Positions 1 through 6,420 of a stretch of 6,420 bases of DNA are shown piece after piece. The stretch comes from a bacterium UBP7_UBA7824 (lineage in GTDB: Bacteria > UBP7 > UBA6624). The first letter of the stretch is position 1. Each line of letters opens with the position of its first letter. The notes under the pieces are model-generated. The model did not search any database. It saw only the letters and a program-made list of their open reading frames with translations, and was not told where the DNA came from. The DNA lies in assembly GCA_002501535.1 (NCBI GenBank), contig DLTY01000052.1:2272-8691 (forward strand), in the 5' to 3' direction. The translations under genes and the position numbers were made by a program.

Positions 1-75
1 GGATGTAGCGCAGCCTGGTAGCGCGCTGCGCTGGGGGTGCAGAGGTCGGAGGTTCGAATCCTCTCGTCCCGACCA
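1..75 (+). tRNA. tRNA-Pro (anticodon GGG), lacking its first two bases
   Basis: The cloverleaf folds directly. The D stem is GCGC/GCGC around the AGCCTGGTA loop. The anticodon stem is CTGCG (26-30) with TGCAG (38-42), closing on a G-T pair. The seven-base loop CTGGGGG (31-37) puts GGG at 33-35, after the invariant T32, so it reads the proline codons CCC and CCU. The T arm is GGAGG-TTCGAAT-CCTCT. The 3' acceptor strand CGTCCCG (65-71) pairs with GGATG at 1-5, so two bases (expected CG) lie outside the window. The 3' ACCA (72-75) is encoded. The sequence closely resembles common bacterial tRNA-Pro genes. Confidence 0.95.
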
Positions 76-101: not shown

Positions 102-1682
102 ATGAAAACAATACTCATCTTTATTTTTTTTCTGACTGCAAGCAGTCTTGACCTCAAAGCAAATCTTGAATCTGCCCCAAGCCTGATTACCAAAAGTTTC
201 ACGACTTCATTAGGTGATGAGGGTCATCTGTGGGAGGTTTCAGGATTACCCGTAGACGATTCAAAGCCCGTTATTTTCCTTATCGGCGGATTGAGAGGCG
301 ATGAGCCTTATTCAGTTGCTGCAATAGAGCATTTCATGATCAGTCTTGATCAGGATTATAGAAATGGTGATGCTGCTGCTGTTGAGCTTTTGAGCAGGGT
401 TACCTTCAGGGCTATTCCAGGATTAAACCCATCAGGCCTAAAGCTTGCTGCAGGCATTTCGGAAATGTTCCCATGGAATGGTGTTCCCTGGGATGATGAT
501 GATGATGGCTTCAAAGATGAAGACCCACCTTTTGACCTTAATGGCGATGGGGTGATTGGTTCCGTCAGGATAGAGAAGCCTTGGGGGGAATGGAAAGAAG
601 TGTTGCCAAAAGACGATTTAAAAATAACAAAAATGAAAAAAGCTGACTTCGTAAAAGGAGAGAAAGGCGGATGGATACTTCGTGATATTGAAGGTGACGA
701 CTCTGATGGAGATGGTTTATATGGAGAGGATGGATTGGGAGGAATCTCATTGGACAGGAATTTTCCTTACAACTGGCAGTTCCCCTATTCCAATTCTGGC
801 GGAGGCCCTTTTGCTGTTAGTGAGAGTGAAGTAAAGTTTGTTGTAGATGAATTGCTGGCTTCTCCTGAGGTTGCATTTATTGTTAACGTTAGAGATCTAG
901 GAGCAGGCATGGCTTATCCGATGAGTAATGAATCTTCTGATAAAACCCCTCAAAAAGACAAGAAAATATTTGAGGCAATTGGAGAAAGGTTTAAACAACA
1001 AACACCTTATGAGTCATTCTTCATGGCTAAAGATGGACCTGAATCATGGTCCAAGAAGGGAAATTTTTTGGATTGGGCTTACGCGGGTTTGGGCAGATGG
1101 TCAGTTTCTGTTGGATTATGGGGCTTGCCAAAAGAGCATGAGGAAACTGGTGAGTTAATTTTTGAAAAAGCATGGCACCAGGTTTCAGAAAAGGAGTGGT
1201 TCGACGTTGTTGGCTACCAGGATTGGACAAGCTACAAAGAGGGAGAAGATTCCTCAGGATGGCCAATTTATGGCAAAAGCAGGATTCCAGATGGTGAAAC
1301 AAGATTAACAGGCATTCTCGATAGTTGGCTGAAATCTTTGGTTGGAGAATTGCCAATTCTCAATATAGCTATTGAGGAATCTGAAAGGCTCAGTTCAGAA
1401 ACTGTAAAAGTTAAATTGAGAGTATGGAATAGTGGTTTGTTGAGTACAGATTCAGACATGTCATCGCGAATCAGGGAATCATCAAATGTTTGGGTTCGTT
1501 TTCCCGAAAGTGATTCAATGCTGGTTGTAGGTTTGCCGCAAATTAATTTAGGTTCACTTGAACCTGGAGAAAGCAAGTCTTGGGAGTGGGTGCTCAAAGG
1601 CAGGAAGAAGATTGAAGTATCACCAACACACCCCCGATCGTTTGTCAATTCTTTAACAATTGACCCAAAGGAGATTAAATAA
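102..1682 (+). CDS. Exported M14-family carboxypeptidase homologue with a destroyed active site (probable pseudopeptidase)
   Basis: This 526-residue protein is a homologue of the zinc carboxypeptidase encoded just downstream. Residues 1-20 form a signal peptide (Lys2, then a hydrophobic stretch rich in I, L and F; plausible cleavage after LKA). The M14-like core spans about 50-345. The zinc motif HxxE is replaced by RGDE (R65-E68), the second zinc His by R264, the catalytic Glu by G338, and the active-site Tyr by W316. The N-R substrate pair reads D218-R219, so the Arg that would bind the substrate carboxylate remains. The N-terminal helix and GQSxEGR segment of its neighbour are missing. Asp-rich loops resembling Ca sites lie at 131-149 and 199-210. 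A beta-rich C-terminal domain follows from about 415. The family membership and substitutions are seen by comparison with the neighbour. A binding, regulatory or scaffold role is inferred. The stop overlaps the next start by one base, suggesting translational coupling. Confidence 0.85.
   Translation: MKTILIFIFFLTASSLDLKANLESAPSLITKSFTTSLGDEGHLWEVSGLPVDDSKPVIFLIGGLRGDEPYSVAAIEHFMISLDQDYRNGDAAAVELLSRVTFRAIPGLNPSGLKLAAGISEMFPWNGVPWDDDDDGFKDEDPPFDLNGDGVIGSVRIEKPWGEWKEVLPKDDLKITKMKKADFVKGEKGGWILRDIEGDDSDGDGLYGEDGLGGISLDRNFPYNWQFPYSNSGGGPFAVSESEVKFVVDELLASPEVAFIVNVRDLGAGMAYPMSNESSDKTPQKDKKIFEAIGERFKQQTPYESFFMAKDGPESWSKKGNFLDWAYAGLGRWSVSVGLWGLPKEHEETGELIFEKAWHQVSEKEWFDVVGYQDWTSYKEGEDSSGWPIYGKSRIPDGETRLTGILDSWLKSLVGELPILNIAIEESERLSSETVKVKLRVWNSGLLSTDSDMSSRIRESSNVWVRFPESDSMLVVGLPQINLGSLEPGESKSWEWVLKGRKKIEVSPTHPRSFVNSLTIDPKEIK
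1667..1673 (+). promoter_or_regulatory. Strong ribosome binding site of the second M14 gene
   Basis: AAAGGAG lies 8 bases before the ATG at 1682, inside the last codons of the preceding gene. It fixes the start, and the TAATG stop-start overlap supports translation of both M14 proteins from one mRNA. Confidence 0.85.
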
Positions 1683-3403
1683 TGAAGTTTTTTATGTATT
1701 TTTTGATTTTTACCTTGTGTGCTTTTACTCCCCCAAGAACAATCGAGCCCAAAGTCAATATTGATTTTTCAACTTACTATGATTATGAGGAGATGAGGGA
1801 CATATTAATAGATTTAACAGATGCTTATCCGGAACTTTTGACCCTGGATGTTATGGGTCAAAGTCGTGAAGGCAGGGATATATGGATCGTTACCGTGAAT
1901 AATCCTTTGACAGGTGAGCATTCGTCAAAGCCCGCAATGTACATTGATGCTAATACACATGGTAATGAGATACAGGGGAGTGAAATTTCAATTTTTACAA
2001 TTTATTACCTGGCAACAAGGTTTAACAAGGACGAATGGGTAACACAGTTGTTAAATGATTATTCTTTTTATATTGCTCCAACTGTTAACCCTGATAGTCG
2101 GCATAGATTTTTTCACGAACCTAATACCCCACATAGTCCAAGACAGAATATAAGGCCTTTTGACAATGATAGAGATGGTTATTTTGACGAGGATGGTCCT
2201 GAAGACCTAAATGGAGATGGTGAGATAACACAGATGAGAAGAAAGAGCATTTACGGCAACCAGGTGTCCTCAATTGACCCTAGGGCAATGGAGGGCAAGG
2301 AGTTTGATGCTTATGGTGAATGGGAGGTTTTTTGGACGGAAGGTATTGATAATGATTCTGATGGATCAATAAACGAAGACGGCCTTGGAGGTGTAGATTT
2401 AAACAGGCAGTGGCCTTGGGATTGGGCTGCAGATCACAAGCAATATGGCGCAGGCCCATACATGCTTTCGGAACCAGAGGCACATATAACAGCTGCTTTT
2501 ATTCGTGAACATCCAAACATTGCAGCTGTGCAAAGTTACCACAATGCAGGCAATATGATTTTGCGTCCTCCAGGCACCAAGGAGTCTTCTGAAAGGGGGT
2601 TATCTTCAAAAGATAAAAGAGTTATGGATTTTATGGCTGAGAGGGCTGAGAATTTTCTTCCTGAGTATGAGTATCTTGAGGTTTACAGCGGTCTTTATCC
2701 TGTTAATGGTGGTTTTTTTGATTGGACTTATGGTGAGTTGGGTATTTTTTCTTTCACGAATGAGCTATATAGCTTTAATCCTGACTATGATGGCGATGGG
2801 TACTCTTCACAAATAGAAAAATTGAAATGGAACGATGATGTTGCTCATGGAACATGTTTTGCTGATTGGGAACCTTACAATCATCCAGAATTAGGAGAAA
2901 TTGAAATAGGGGGTTGGAAATCTTTTTGCACAAGAACACCTTTACCAGATGAACTTTTTGACATGGCGATGCAGAATACATTATTTACGCTTATGCATGC
3001 TTCATTTATGCCAAAGGTTGAATTTGGCGAAATAGACATTGTTGAGATAGACAGAAATTTTTGGAGGGTTGATGTTCAGCTGAAAAATGTGTCAGCAATG
3101 CCAACAGCTTCATCGCAGGGTGTTAGAAGTGGTTATGCTCATTCTGATAAGATTTGTTTGGAAGGTGCCGATTTGTCGGTTGCTGGGGCTAGAGAAAAGA
3201 ATTTAAGGCCTGGACAAAGTCTTCTTTTTATTGCGTCACAATTTGAAATTAGAGATAATTGTGTCCATCTTGGACATGTTGATTCATACAGTCAAAAATG
3301 GGTAACAATGTTTGTTGAGGGAAAGAGAAACAAGAAGGTAAATATGATTTTTTCTGCACAAAAAGCAAAATCCATTAATAGCAATTTCAATTTAAAAGAT
3401 TAG
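1682..3403 (+). CDS. Exported M14-family zinc carboxypeptidase, active site intact
   Basis: This 573-residue metallocarboxypeptidase is expected to remove C-terminal residues from peptides outside the cytoplasm. A hydrophobic signal peptide covers about 1-16. Cys13 is preceded by T-L, which is a poor lipobox. The M14 catalytic domain spans about 30-440. It shows GQSREGR (59-65), the zinc motif HGNE (H93, E96), the N241-R242 pair that binds the substrate carboxylate in carboxypeptidase A, the third ligand H287 in SYHNAG, a Tyr at 339 before GGFFDW, and the catalytic E361 in FTNEL. Asp-rich loops of the DxDxDG type at 161-171, 175-181, 223-233 and 366-374 look like Ca-binding inserts. The C-terminal part (about 445-573) is beta-rich and of unknown function. 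Four Cys outside the signal (392, 416, 492, 527) could form two disulfides. It is co-transcribed with the inactive paralogue upstream. Specificity cannot be read from sequence. Confidence 0.93.
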   Translation: MKFFMYFLIFTLCAFTPPRTIEPKVNIDFSTYYDYEEMRDILIDLTDAYPELLTLDVMGQSREGRDIWIVTVNNPLTGEHSSKPAMYIDANTHGNEIQGSEISIFTIYYLATRFNKDEWVTQLLNDYSFYIAPTVNPDSRHRFFHEPNTPHSPRQNIRPFDNDRDGYFDEDGPEDLNGDGEITQMRRKSIYGNQVSSIDPRAMEGKEFDAYGEWEVFWTEGIDNDSDGSINEDGLGGVDLNRQWPWDWAADHKQYGAGPYMLSEPEAHITAAFIREHPNIAAVQSYHNAGNMILRPPGTKESSERGLSSKDKRVMDFMAERAENFLPEYEYLEVYSGLYPVNGGFFDWTYGELGIFSFTNELYSFNPDYDGDGYSSQIEKLKWNDDVAHGTCFADWEPYNHPELGEIEIGGWKSFCTRTPLPDELFDMAMQNTLFTLMHASFMPKVEFGEIDIVEIDRNFWRVDVQLKNVSAMPTASSQGVRSGYAHSDKICLEGADLSVAGAREKNLRPGQSLLFIASQFEIRDNCVHLGHVDSYSQKWVTMFVEGKRNKKVNMIFSAQKAKSINSNFNLKD

Positions 3404-3405
3404 TT

Positions 3406-4737
3406 TTATTTGTAGACAGGCAGTTCTCTGTATTTTTCAAATAGGTAATCTTGTCTTGATTTGAGATCTACCCAATTTCCGCCAACCATTAAAGATTCAA
3501 GTCTTCCCCTGTATTCAAATGGATGATCTGTCCAAAGTGCCACATCTGCCCTCATGCCTTTTTCGATCCTTCCTGAATAATTATCAAGCCTAAGTGCAGC
3601 TGCAGGATTTTCAGTTATGGCCGCTAATGCATCCCCCTCGGATAAACCATTTGCCCAAGCAATGCCAGCCTTGAAACGGATCCTTTGAAGATTGTGTGAA
3701 CTAAATGCAGAAAAAATAACATTAACTCCATACCTAGTCATAATCTGACTATTTTTCAATGTTGCCCCCATTGAATCAAAACCACCCAAAAGGTTTGCTT
3801 CACTATCTATTAGCACAGAATATTGACTTTCAGCAATTTCTTCAGCCACGACCCATCCTTCATGCACTCCTTGGAGTATCAGATCCATACCCCACTCTTT
3901 ACCAATTTTTATTACATCAAGAATTGCTTTTGCATCAGAAACTGAAACAAATACAGGAATCTCTCCCTTGAAAGCTTTAAAAAGAACTTCAAGTTCTTCG
4001 AAAGGCAGAGACAGTGTATGTAGCTCGCCTATAGAGAATTTTTCGGAATTATTTATGTAAAAGTCAGCATCTTCTTTCCATTTTTTCCAAAGCTCTTTAC
4101 CTTTTGATCCACCTTCCCAAGGAAGAGATATTGACTGCACATCACTACATTTTTCTGCATAGCCTGGAATTTGTTTGTTGTCTGAAAGACAAACAACCCC
4201 ATTCAATCCACTTCCCCTTATCAAAGCCAAAGCCACACCACCTCTTCTTGCCAGCTTGACATGACTTGCATCAGGTTTGAAATCATCAATATTCTCTTTA
4301 CCAAACCCTCTTTCTTCTTGTATACCTGACACCGAGGAGGCTGTATGTTTATGGGAATGACCGTGACTGTGGGTAGATTCAAGATCCATGATATCGGAGC
4401 CACTTATTGAAGGTAACCCTATTGATGTACCAATATCAAAAAATCCAATTGTTGCAATTAGTCCCAAACCATCTTTGACAATATATCCTTCTGAGTTTGT
4501 TCCTTGCCATCCAACATAACTGCTTTCAGAAATGCTTTCTATAAGGCCATTTTTGATGAGTATTACTGCATTTGGAATTTTTTTTATGCATTTTTGAGCA
4601 GGGTTATCGGTGCATTTTTCAGTTCCAACCCATGCTTCAATGTTCTGGATAGCAATTTTTTCTTCAAACTCCATAGTTACTGGAGAAAGCCATATTAGGT
4701 TAAAAAAAGAACTAAATAACAGTATTAAAACATTCAT
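3406..4737 (-). CDS. Exported amidohydrolase-superfamily protein lacking all metal ligands (probable pseudoenzyme)
   Basis: This 443-residue protein is a paralogue of the amidohydrolase encoded immediately upstream. Residues 1-18 form a hydrophobic signal or anchor. The beta-sandwich and TIM-barrel layout is retained, ending in the family motif GMRADVALW (394-402). Where the neighbour has D-I-H-S-H-M-G, this protein has D-I-G-T-S-I-G (101-107). The beta-5 His is S265, the beta-6 His is Q289/G290, and the beta-8 Asp is F345. No metal centre of the usual kind is therefore possible. A His-rich loop (H123, 125, 127, 129, 131) follows the lost HxH. Cys42/Cys50 and Cys183/Cys197 could form disulfides, as suits an exported protein. 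The ATGA overlap with the upstream gene (4 bases) indicates translational coupling. Paired or fused amidohydrolases with one HxH-less copy are, as far as I recall, found in Bacteroidota. A structural partner or regulatory role is inferred. Confidence 0.85.
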   Translation of the reverse strand: MNVLILLFSSFFNLIWLSPVTMEFEEKIAIQNIEAWVGTEKCTDNPAQKCIKKIPNAVILIKNGLIESISESSYVGWQGTNSEGYIVKDGLGLIATIGFFDIGTSIGLPSISGSDIMDLESTHSHGHSHKHTASSVSGIQEERGFGKENIDDFKPDASHVKLARRGGVALALIRGSGLNGVVCLSDNKQIPGYAEKCSDVQSISLPWEGGSKGKELWKKWKEDADFYINNSEKFSIGELHTLSLPFEELEVLFKAFKGEIPVFVSVSDAKAILDVIKIGKEWGMDLILQGVHEGWVVAEEIAESQYSVLIDSEANLLGGFDSMGATLKNSQIMTRYGVNVIFSAFSSHNLQRIRFKAGIAWANGLSEGDALAAITENPAAALRLDNYSGRIEKGMRADVALWTDHPFEYRGRLESLMVGGNWVDLKSRQDYLFEKYRELPVYK

Positions 4738-6146
4738 TTCAAACTCCTGTCAAAAGTCCATTGTCCTGTTTCAAAATCACTCCAACCCGAGAAACCTTTG
4801 TTGACATCCCACATTATTTCACCATCTATGATTGTTGTTTCTGATATAGCCCTAATCGACAAGGGATGATGGCTCCAGATAACTAGATCAGCCATTTTTC
4901 CAGGCTTCAAGCTTCCTGTTTGTTCATGTATGTCTAGCCCCCAGGCTGCATTGTATGTAAACCAATCAATAGCTTCTTCTTCCTTTATATCCAAACCTTT
5001 CTCGATAGCTTCATAATAGATCTGAGCTGCGCGTTGGTTAAGCCTTTGTATGTCAATCGCACTATCACTATGAATAATTACATTTACACCTTCAGTGTGA
5101 GACAAGCCTGGACCAGCTGTTGTAGCGTCATATGCTTCATATTTAAAACCCCACCAATCTGCCCAAATCCCAACACCCGTATTGTTTTTTGCCAAAATGT
5201 CTCTAATTTTGTAAGATTCAATGGCATGATGAAAAACCCTCAAATGCCAATTGAATTCATGTGACAGGTCTATCATGTGCAGCAAATCATCAGCTCTATA
5301 GCAATGAACTTGAGCTAAAATTTCGCCATCCATTAGTCGCATCAAGGTCTCCATCGTTAAATCTCTTGATGGGGGACTTGGCTCTTCCCCTTTTTGGTTA
5401 TTGCTCCATTCTTCCCATTCCTGTTCCCATTTTTTCCAGTTTTTTGAATATTCAACGGCATTTATCCAAACTTGCCTATTTCGATAAAGGTTACCCATCC
5501 TTGTTTGAGGACCACCCCTGTCTCCATAAACCCTTTTAGGGTTTTCCCCACACGCCATTTTTAGGCCATCTTTAGCTTCTGGAAACCTCATGTCTTGCGG
5601 TGTCAACCTTGGGTGCAGCTTCAAAGTTGCAGCATGTCCACCTATGAGGTTTGCAGAACCAGGAAGTACTTGGATTGTTGTTGTACCTCCAGCGACAGCC
5701 CTTTCAATAGCGATATCTTGTGGCCAAAATGCATGTATGGTCTCAATCCCAGCTGTTATAGGGCTAACCATCTCATTTCCATCACTATGTGCTGCTGGTC
5801 CAGGGTTGGCATATACACCCATATGAGAATGGATATCAACCATACCAGGTGTTATGTATTTGTTTTGAGCATCAATAACGGTAACATTATCATCAATAAT
5901 ACCAGTAAAATTTCCCTCTCCGATAGAGTGAACAAGTCGATCTTTTAAAAGTATCCAACCTTTTTCAATAACCAATCCTTCGCCTTGGAATATTTTTGCA
6001 TTTTCAATCAGTATTGGGTTTGCATCATTTGCAAATTTAAGCTCGCCCCTGATTTCTTTCCATGGGGGTTGAACTTCAGCAATTGATTCTTTTTCCTTTG
6101 AGAAAAGATTTCCTATTCCAAGAATAACAGCTAAAAAGATTCCCAT
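4734..6146 (-). CDS. Exported imidazolonepropionase-like amidohydrolase, metal site intact
   Basis: This 470-residue metal-dependent hydrolase belongs to the amidohydrolase superfamily, in the HutI-like group. A hydrophobic signal segment covers about 2-15. An N-terminal beta strand region leads into TPGMVDIHSHMG (99-110), which supplies metal ligands H106 and H108. Further ligands are H281 (VHCYRADD, beta-5), H306/H307 (beta-6) and D361 (HSDS, beta-8). AGGTTTIQVLPGSANLIGG (152-170) and GKMADLVIW (416-424) are family signatures. A Trp- and charge-rich insert (about 232-255) has a shorter echo in the downstream paralogue. Characterised relatives include imidazolonepropionase and Xaa-Arg/Lys or Xaa-Pro dipeptidases. 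Export makes histidine catabolism unlikely and peptide or amide hydrolysis more plausible, but the substrate is inferred. No Shine-Dalgarno is visible before this ATG, whereas the downstream gene has one. It is the first gene of a two-gene operon. Confidence 0.92.
   Translation of the reverse strand: MGIFLAVILGIGNLFSKEKESIAEVQPPWKEIRGELKFANDANPILIENAKIFQGEGLVIEKGWILLKDRLVHSIGEGNFTGIIDDNVTVIDAQNKYITPGMVDIHSHMGVYANPGPAAHSDGNEMVSPITAGIETIHAFWPQDIAIERAVAGGTTTIQVLPGSANLIGGHAATLKLHPRLTPQDMRFPEAKDGLKMACGENPKRVYGDRGGPQTRMGNLYRNRQVWINAVEYSKNWKKWEQEWEEWSNNQKGEEPSPPSRDLTMETLMRLMDGEILAQVHCYRADDLLHMIDLSHEFNWHLRVFHHAIESYKIRDILAKNNTGVGIWADWWGFKYEAYDATTAGPGLSHTEGVNVIIHSDSAIDIQRLNQRAAQIYYEAIEKGLDIKEEEAIDWFTYNAAWGLDIHEQTGSLKPGKMADLVIWSHHPLSIRAISETTIIDGEIMWDVNKGFSGWSDFETGQWTFDRSLK
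4744..4748 (-). promoter_or_regulatory. Ribosome binding site of the second amidohydrolase gene
   Basis: On the - strand AGGAG lies 6 bases before the ATG at 4737, within the end of the upstream gene. It selects this start, which overlaps the upstream TGA as ATGA. The other nearby ATG (4733-4731) is out of frame. Confidence 0.8.
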
Positions 6147-6179: not shown

Positions 6180-6420
6180 ATGACTCTTCTTTTATTTGAT
6201 ATTGATGGAACATTAATGCTAACTGGTTTTGCTGGAGTGGACGCTTTTGAGCACTCGGTAAAAAAAATGTATCAAAAATCACCTGGAAGTATTGATTTTG
6301 CAGGCGGCTTGGATTCAGAAAACGCAAGAGCTTGGATATCCGGCATAGGAGAAAACCCAAGCAGTAAAGATTTGAGAATTTTTAAATCTTATGTTGAAAA
6401 AAGAATGCCGACCTCTTTGA
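6180..6420 (+). CDS. HAD-superfamily hydrolase (phosphatase-like), N-terminal 80 residues, truncated by the window end
   Basis: The frame is open from ATG at 6180 to the window end (80 codons plus one base). Residues 4-12 read LLFDIDGTL, the HAD motif I: D7 is the expected nucleophile that becomes aspartyl-phosphate and D9 the general acid/base. The following TGFAGVDAFEHSVKKMY and AGGLDSENARAWIS resemble the helical cap start of phosphoglycolate-phosphatase-like HAD proteins. Motifs II to IV are beyond the window. No signal peptide is present, so it is cytoplasmic, unlike the four exported neighbours. It is transcribed away from them and is probably functionally separate. The ATG has no Shine-Dalgarno, but no better start is visible before motif I. 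The substrate cannot be told from this fragment. Confidence 0.9.
   Translation, partial: MTLLLFDIDGTLMLTGFAGVDAFEHSVKKMYQKSPGSIDFAGGLDSENARAWISGIGENPSSKDLRIFKSYVEKRMPTSL

What the first reader, a model, noticed from the sequence alone, without database searches (positions are those of the whole stretch)
102..6146. Two convergent operons, each pairing an active enzyme with an inactive paralogue
Two unrelated hydrolase families in one 6-kb block show the same architecture: an overlapping tandem pair, one copy catalytic, one copy dead, and all four exported. In the M14 pair the dead copy is first; in the amidohydrolase pair the live copy is first. The repetition suggests heteromeric hydrolase complexes working together on peptides outside the cytoplasm. 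I do not know of a described system with both pairs together.
Basis: inference. Interest (0 to 1): 0.75.

Follow-up and report, generated by a model that had tools for sequence, protein, structure and literature searches.

The report
Enzymes paired with ancient dead twins
This 6-kb block carries two enzyme genes, likely for breaking down peptides, each next to a sister copy that has lost its active-site residues; relatives of these disabled copies lie beside their intact partners in many bacterial lineages and likely serve as lasting partner subunits rather than decaying leftovers.

Summary
The window has an M14 carboxypeptidase-like pair (dead copy first) and an amidohydrolase pair (live copy first), overlapping by 1 and 4 bases and converging 2 bp apart. 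Both belong to wider modules. Of 20 dead M14 copies found in 18 genomes (12 families), 18 lie beside a live copy on one contig (17 dead-first, 1 live-first), one is split over two contigs and one runs into a contig end; no solo dead copy was seen, though the surveys scored few candidates per genome. The amidohydrolase metal site is intact in 30 of 30 live domains read and in 0 of 53 dead ones; 37 of 38 C-type dead copies lie beside a live one. In 20 of 30 loci another dead domain is fused to the live one; in one, all three are fused. Both dead genes of the window are under purifying selection. The two operons are neighbours only in the window's lineage (3 of 3 genomes, one resting on two contigs), in 0 of 7 others that hold both. 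Best reading: two separately evolved hydrolases, each likely a heteromer with a dead subunit, comparable to M16 peptidase pairs. That the two work together remains weakly supported.

The parts
1..75 (+). tRNA-Pro (ggg), its first two bases outside the window; also directly upstream of the M14 pair in both related genomes (context, not part of the enzymes)
   Evidence: L003 2270-2346 = window -1 to 75; L004 427-503; L061 11795-11870
102..1682 (+). M14 pseudopeptidase (dead copy), 526 aa, predicted exported; catalytic columns R-E-R-G
   Evidence: fold like carboxypeptidase T; dead clade
492..551 (+). first Asp-rich DxDxDG loop of the dead M14 copy (residues 131-150), kept although the zinc site is lost
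   Evidence: invariant columns
690..743 (+). second Asp-rich loop of the dead M14 copy (residues 197-214)
1682..3403 (+). M14 carboxypeptidase-like enzyme (live copy), 573 aa, predicted exported; catalytic columns H-E-H-E
   Evidence: partner clade
2156..2221 (+). first Asp-rich loop of the live M14 copy (residues 159-180)
2339..2392 (+). second Asp-rich loop of the live M14 copy (residues 220-237)
3406..4737 (-). C-type pseudo-amidohydrolase (dead copy), 443 aa; metal-site columns G-S-C-S-G-F
   Evidence: best fit to the C-dead profile built without this lineage (110 bits against 65 live and 63 N-dead)
4734..6146 (-). amidohydrolase (live copy), 470 aa; metal-site columns H-H-K-H-H-D
6180..6419 (+). 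start of a HAD-family hydrolase gene, cut by the window end; flanks the block in G000, G001 and G002
   Evidence: frames; Pfam match on the full-length copy in L060

Best explanation
Each of the two gene pairs encodes a hydrolase with an intact metal site together with a conserved homologue that has lost the metal site, and the dead homologue likely acts as a lasting partner subunit of the live one outside the cytoplasm. Shown: the motifs, gene order, near-universal co-location among the copies found, one main dead M14 clade, purifying selection, retained Asp-rich loops of the M14 dead copy, and natural dead-live fusions of the amidohydrolase. Predicted: the retained carboxypeptidase fold of the M14 dead copy. 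Inferred: export; that dead and live chains bind each other; that the dead chain stabilises, positions or gates the live chain, or adds substrate-binding surface, as the inactive subunit of M16 peptidases does. The M14 enzyme would clip C-terminal residues and the amidohydrolase would cleave small peptide-like amides; no substrate was tested. The two modules are separate in origin and in the other genomes seen. Their adjacency in the window is a feature of one lineage and may reflect co-use on the same peptide pool.
Against: No complex was modelled between separate chains; the structure tool folds single chains only. The surveys with profiles scored only the best 3 (M14) or 4 (amidohydrolase) candidates per genome, so dead copies without partners could be missed; one further M14 pair (G322 C23), with the opposite order, live first and dead second (R-E-Q-S), came to light only when I fetched left-over hits. 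So the gene order is not universal, and loss of catalysis may have happened in more than one branch. One genome (G198) has its C-dead amidohydrolase on another contig than the live one. The window's lineage lacks the N-dead domain that most others have (assemblies 62 to 86% complete). Its dead amidohydrolase sits on a very long branch (2.6) and is not placed with the other C-dead copies in the tree. The three dead M14 copies of this lineage keep one of four residues that the 12 others lost. Live relatives without a dead partner exist in other M14 clades. Long-branch attraction could exaggerate the single dead clade. Correlated distances are expected for any two genes inherited together.
Confidence: 0.65

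Rival explanations
1. The dead copies are stand-alone binding proteins (for peptides, cell-wall material or metal) that share an operon and a substrate with the live enzyme but form no complex with it.
For: Separate genes in every M14 pair read; M14 pseudopeptidases interact with collagens according to the abstract of the review PMC11266112 (passage seen).
Against: Dead and live amidohydrolase domains are fused in 20 of 30 loci; near-strict adjacency and matching divergence.
Confidence: 0.2
2. The dead copies have a different chemistry, using other residues or another metal.
For: They are conserved and under purifying selection, and the M14 dead copy is predicted to keep its fold.
Against: Metal-site columns are replaced by many different residues; no shared new catalytic set was apparent in the columns read, which is not a full search for one.
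Confidence: 0.08
3. All four proteins form one extracellular peptide-degrading machine.
For: The four genes stay together in 3 of 3 genomes held for this phylum although the order and direction of the pairs differ between genera; the modules co-occur more often than expected; a DUF885 gene, which by my recall may be peptidase-like, lies nearby.
Against: In 7 other genomes with both modules they were not seen adjacent; 6 of the 15 surveyed M14-pair genomes had no amidohydrolase match at E <= 1e-60; in the genome with the other gene order the link crosses two contigs whose ends match over 150 bp at only 81%.
Confidence: 0.15
4. The dead copies are decaying pseudogenes or assembly artefacts.
For: None found beyond the lost motifs.
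Against: Intact frames in many genomes, dN/dS near 0.09, confident fold prediction.
Confidence: 0.01

Closest known systems
M16B peptidases: mitochondrial processing peptidase and its bacterial two-gene homologues (review PMC11266112, section 13 read)
   Same: An active and a homologous inactive chain of about 500 residues; in bacteria a two-gene operon; in M16A and M16C both halves fused into one chain of about 1000 residues, as seen here for the amidohydrolase.
   Different: Unrelated folds (M14 carboxypeptidase; amidohydrolase barrel); here a complex has not been shown; the amidohydrolase has two kinds of dead partner.
Pseudomonas aspartate transcarbamoylase with pseudo-dihydroorotase (PMC7053772, abstract and outline seen)
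   Same: A dead amidohydrolase-superfamily chain needed by an active partner chain (that dihydroorotase belongs to this superfamily is recalled).
   Different: There the partner is an unrelated enzyme; here the partner is a live paralogue and export is predicted.
Trypanosoma AdoMetDC and prozyme (PMC5201418, start of abstract seen in the listing)
   Same: An active enzyme in functional complex with a catalytically dead paralogue.
   Different: Other enzyme family, eukaryotic; regulation was shown there, not here.
M14 pseudopeptidases AEBP1, CPXM1, CPXM2, CPD domain III and Ecm14 (PMC11266112, passages seen)
   Same: M14 fold with lost catalytic residues.
   Different: Those are animal or yeast proteins; the passages seen describe no bacterial M14 pair with a live copy.
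Carboxypeptidase T of Thermoactinomyces (PDB 1obr, 6f79)
   Same: Closest solved M14 relative by sequence and fold.
   Different: About 323 residues against 526 to 573 here, so it lacks much of the added sequence; a dead partner was not looked for; its calcium binding is recalled, not tested.
Thermotoga maritima amidohydrolase, PDB 3ooq
   Same: Closest solved relative of the live amidohydrolase (E 3.8e-89; target TM-score 0.87 to 0.89 against a fused relative).
   Different: About 385 to 396 residues; whether it has a dead partner was not checked; no paper in the library names it.

Membership tests
Peptidase family M14 (live copy, 1682-3403) | Two His and one Glu as zinc ligands and the catalytic Glu | tested here: met
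   H-E-H-E in aligned columns; Pfam PF00246, 151.8 bits against cut-off 21.6
Peptidase family M14 (live copy) | Carboxypeptidase activity | not testable with these tools
   no assay
Peptidase family M14, as an active peptidase (dead copy, 102-1682) | Zinc ligands and catalytic Glu | tested here: not met
Amidohydrolase superfamily (live copy, 4734-6146) | HxH, Lys, His, His, Asp metal site | tested here: met
   H-H-K-H-H-D; PF01979 49 bits against 25
Amidohydrolase superfamily, as an active enzyme (dead copy, 3406-4737) | HxH, Lys, His, His, Asp metal site | tested here: not met
   G-S-C-S-G-F
Xaa-Pro dipeptidase NF051886, HutI TIGR01224, PhnM TIGR02318 (live amidohydrolase) | NCBIfam curated cut-off score | tested here: not met
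   39.9 bits against 500, 39.8 against 298.15, 26.6 against 390.55 (25 of 37 matching families were shown, none of those above its cut-off)
Active plus inactive paralogue pairs of the M16B kind (as a kind, not a family) | Co-encoded live and dead homologous chains, conserved as a pair | tested here: met
Active plus inactive paralogue pairs of the M16B kind (as a kind, not a family) | Physical complex in which the dead chain is required | not testable with these tools
   indirect only: natural fusions and a confident single-chain model of a fusion

The most novel reading that the evidence does not exclude
Two large, undescribed classes of secreted bacterial hydrolases are obligate heteromers built around ancient dead paralogues: a carboxypeptidase T-like M14 enzyme with a pseudopeptidase subunit that shares its Asp-rich, probably calcium-binding loops, and a dead-live-dead amidohydrolase triad that exists as three genes, as fusions or as one chain. 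In the window's lineage the two have been merged into one locus that encodes a joint peptide-processing assembly.
Probability: 0.3. Interest if true: 0.8.

Novelty: new variant of a known kind. Interest (0 to 1): 0.6.

Why it matters
Active-inactive enzyme pairs are a known principle, but the passages of the 2024 review seen here name M14 pseudopeptidases of animals and yeast only, and searches of one open-access library for bacterial M14 or tandem amidohydrolase pairs listed nothing on point. If the dead copies are subunits, two large groups of proteins now annotated simply as carboxypeptidase or amidohydrolase are parts of larger enzymes, and single-gene assays of them could mislead. The split, partly fused and fully fused forms of one module in different bacteria make it directly testable why evolution keeps a dead half.

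Tried and rejected
Decay of the dead copies: rejected by dN/dS and conservation. The idea that the four-gene block is itself a widespread system: not borne out; adjacency was seen only in the window's lineage. Filing the live amidohydrolase as Xaa-Pro dipeptidase, HutI or PhnM: rejected by curated cut-offs. An N-dead domain elsewhere in the window's lineage: not found (weak matches fell on the known genes and one weak match elsewhere in G001). A terminator between the converging operons: none listed by the scan, and the counts of promoter-like and terminator-like sites were at or below chance level. Naming the organism: the closest named record is PBAU01000013.1, bacterium isolate SP4379; taxonomy and literature look-ups under that name gave nothing. 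Papers naming 3ooq or TM0814 (a locus tag that I recalled): none in the library. Two protein searches with the dead M14 copy or its profile listed 23 proteins each, out of about 8000 candidates, the number at which candidates are cut off. An attempt to widen the linkage survey through the phylum of G057 reached only 6 genomes. The first gene-calling script took a wrong-strand frame over one M14 gene in L109; one search used all frames.

Full report
What is there. The window holds two overlapping gene pairs that converge with 2 bp between their stop codons. On the plus strand a dead M14 peptidase homologue (102-1682) precedes a live one (1682-3403). On the minus strand a live amidohydrolase (6146-4734) precedes a dead one (4737-3406). 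Live and dead are read from aligned catalytic columns: H-E-H-E against R-E-R-G for M14, H-H-K-H-H-D against G-S-C-S-G-F for the amidohydrolase. A tRNA-Pro lies at 1-75 and a HAD hydrolase gene begins at 6180. Each of the four proteins has its most hydrophobic stretch at the N-terminus, which fits export but does not prove it.

The window's lineage. The genome is a 0.94-Mb assembly, 62% complete. Three genomes of its phylum are held. G001, whose contig matches the record PBAU01000013.1 in length, has the same order at 88 to 96% protein identity. In G002, of another genus, the order is live amidohydrolase, dead amidohydrolase, tRNA-Pro, dead M14, live M14, HAD, all in one direction (the HAD gene there is assigned by eye). 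This rests on two contigs whose ends match over 150 bp at 81%, so linkage there is likely but not proven. A FAD synthetase gene lies on the far side in G002 by Pfam; in G000 the matching frame at the contig edge is assigned by eye.

The amidohydrolase pair is part of a wider dead-live-dead module. Of 386 genomes, 66 had a match to the live profile at E <= 1e-60, of which I treated 40 loci in 39 genomes (E <= 1e-135) as the same class. In 30 of these 40 loci read in detail, 30 of 30 live domains keep all six residues, 0 of 27 C-type and 0 of 26 N-type dead domains do. Layouts among the 30: N-dead fused to live, with a separate C-dead gene as a rule, 20; three separate genes 5; all three in one chain 1; cut by a contig end 1; live plus C-dead only, 3, all from the window's lineage. 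One further genome has N-dead, live, live, C-dead in a row (G387). Of 38 C-dead copies called by profile, 37 lie beside a live copy; the exception is G198. In the tree live and N-dead copies each form one clade; C-dead copies do too except those of the window's lineage, which sit on a long branch and are unresolved, though a C-dead profile made without them fits best. A protein search with a fused relative scored a capped set of 7999 proteins, all passing E <= 1e-30; names among the 120 listed include Latescibacteria, KSB1, Planctomycetes, Gemmatimonadota and an archaeon. The fused form is predicted with confidence as one body (pLDDT 89.1, pTM 0.86); its best solved match is 3ooq.

Selection. 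Between G000 and G001, dN/dS is 0.094 (dead M14), 0.049 (live M14), 0.088 (dead amidohydrolase) and 0.064 (live amidohydrolase). All four are maintained.

Do the two pairs belong together? In the 386-genome survey 15 genomes hold the M14 dead-live pair and 39 the amidohydrolase class; outside the window's lineage 6 hold both, 1.1 expected (p = 0.0003 by genome, 0.002 by family with an assumed 259 families, without correction for kinship). G387 from the later search adds a seventh. In none of the seven were they seen adjacent, and no amidohydrolase of these types lies on the fetched stretches around their M14 dead-live pairs (the second, live-first pair of G322 is not in these genomes); the G200 contig (4.6 kb) is too short to exclude it. 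So linkage appears lineage-specific, with a hint of shared use elsewhere.

How it likely works. The dead chain most likely binds its live paralogue and stabilises it, shapes its active-site entrance or binds substrate. The reasons are close co-location, matched divergence, selection, a predicted intact fold, and natural fusions. This is how M16 peptidase pairs work according to PMC11266112 (section 13 read). None of the binding steps is shown here. That M14 pairs and amidohydrolase triads of this kind are not in print rests in one open-access library, by listings only.

Noticed in passing
L221 6576-10755 (G322 C23): A second M14 pair in G322 with the opposite order: a live copy (H-E-H-E, 666 codons) followed by a dead one (R-E-Q-S, 728 codons); possibly an independent case of the same arrangement.
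   Followed up: partly
L068 (G008 C2), L118 (G156 C14), L214 (G387 C215): Tandem M14 pairs in which both copies keep the catalytic residues (in L118 the upstream copy is cut and only two of four are visible); in the G008 pair the upstream copy groups next to the dead clade (86/85, long branch) and the downstream copy within the live clade, so these may resemble the state before the upstream copy died.
   Followed up: partly
window 102-1682 against L060 11398-12978: The dead M14 gene has a much lower synonymous distance (0.16) between G000 and G001 than its three neighbours (0.61 to 0.73), which suggests recent exchange of this stretch next to the tRNA-Pro gene.
   Followed up: no
L060 4094-5800: A DUF885 protein with an HELIPGHH motif lies beyond the HAD gene, another possible peptidase-like protein in the neighbourhood.
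   Followed up: no
L067, L070, L094, L117 and L222 6116-8257: M14 proteins in which the third metal-ligand column is Asp instead of His (H-E-D-E); the first four form one clade.
   Followed up: no
L215 1534-4290 (G387 C34): Two live amidohydrolases in a row between an N-dead and a C-dead copy.
   Followed up: no
L148 (G119 C218): All three amidohydrolase domains, dead-live-dead, in one open frame of about 1400 codons; a 1493-codon frame in G274 may be another, not read.
   Followed up: partly
L061 end and L062 start (G002 C75 and C57): The contig ends overlap in the dead amidohydrolase gene over 150 bp at 81% identity, so they may come from two strains or two gene copies.
   Followed up: partly
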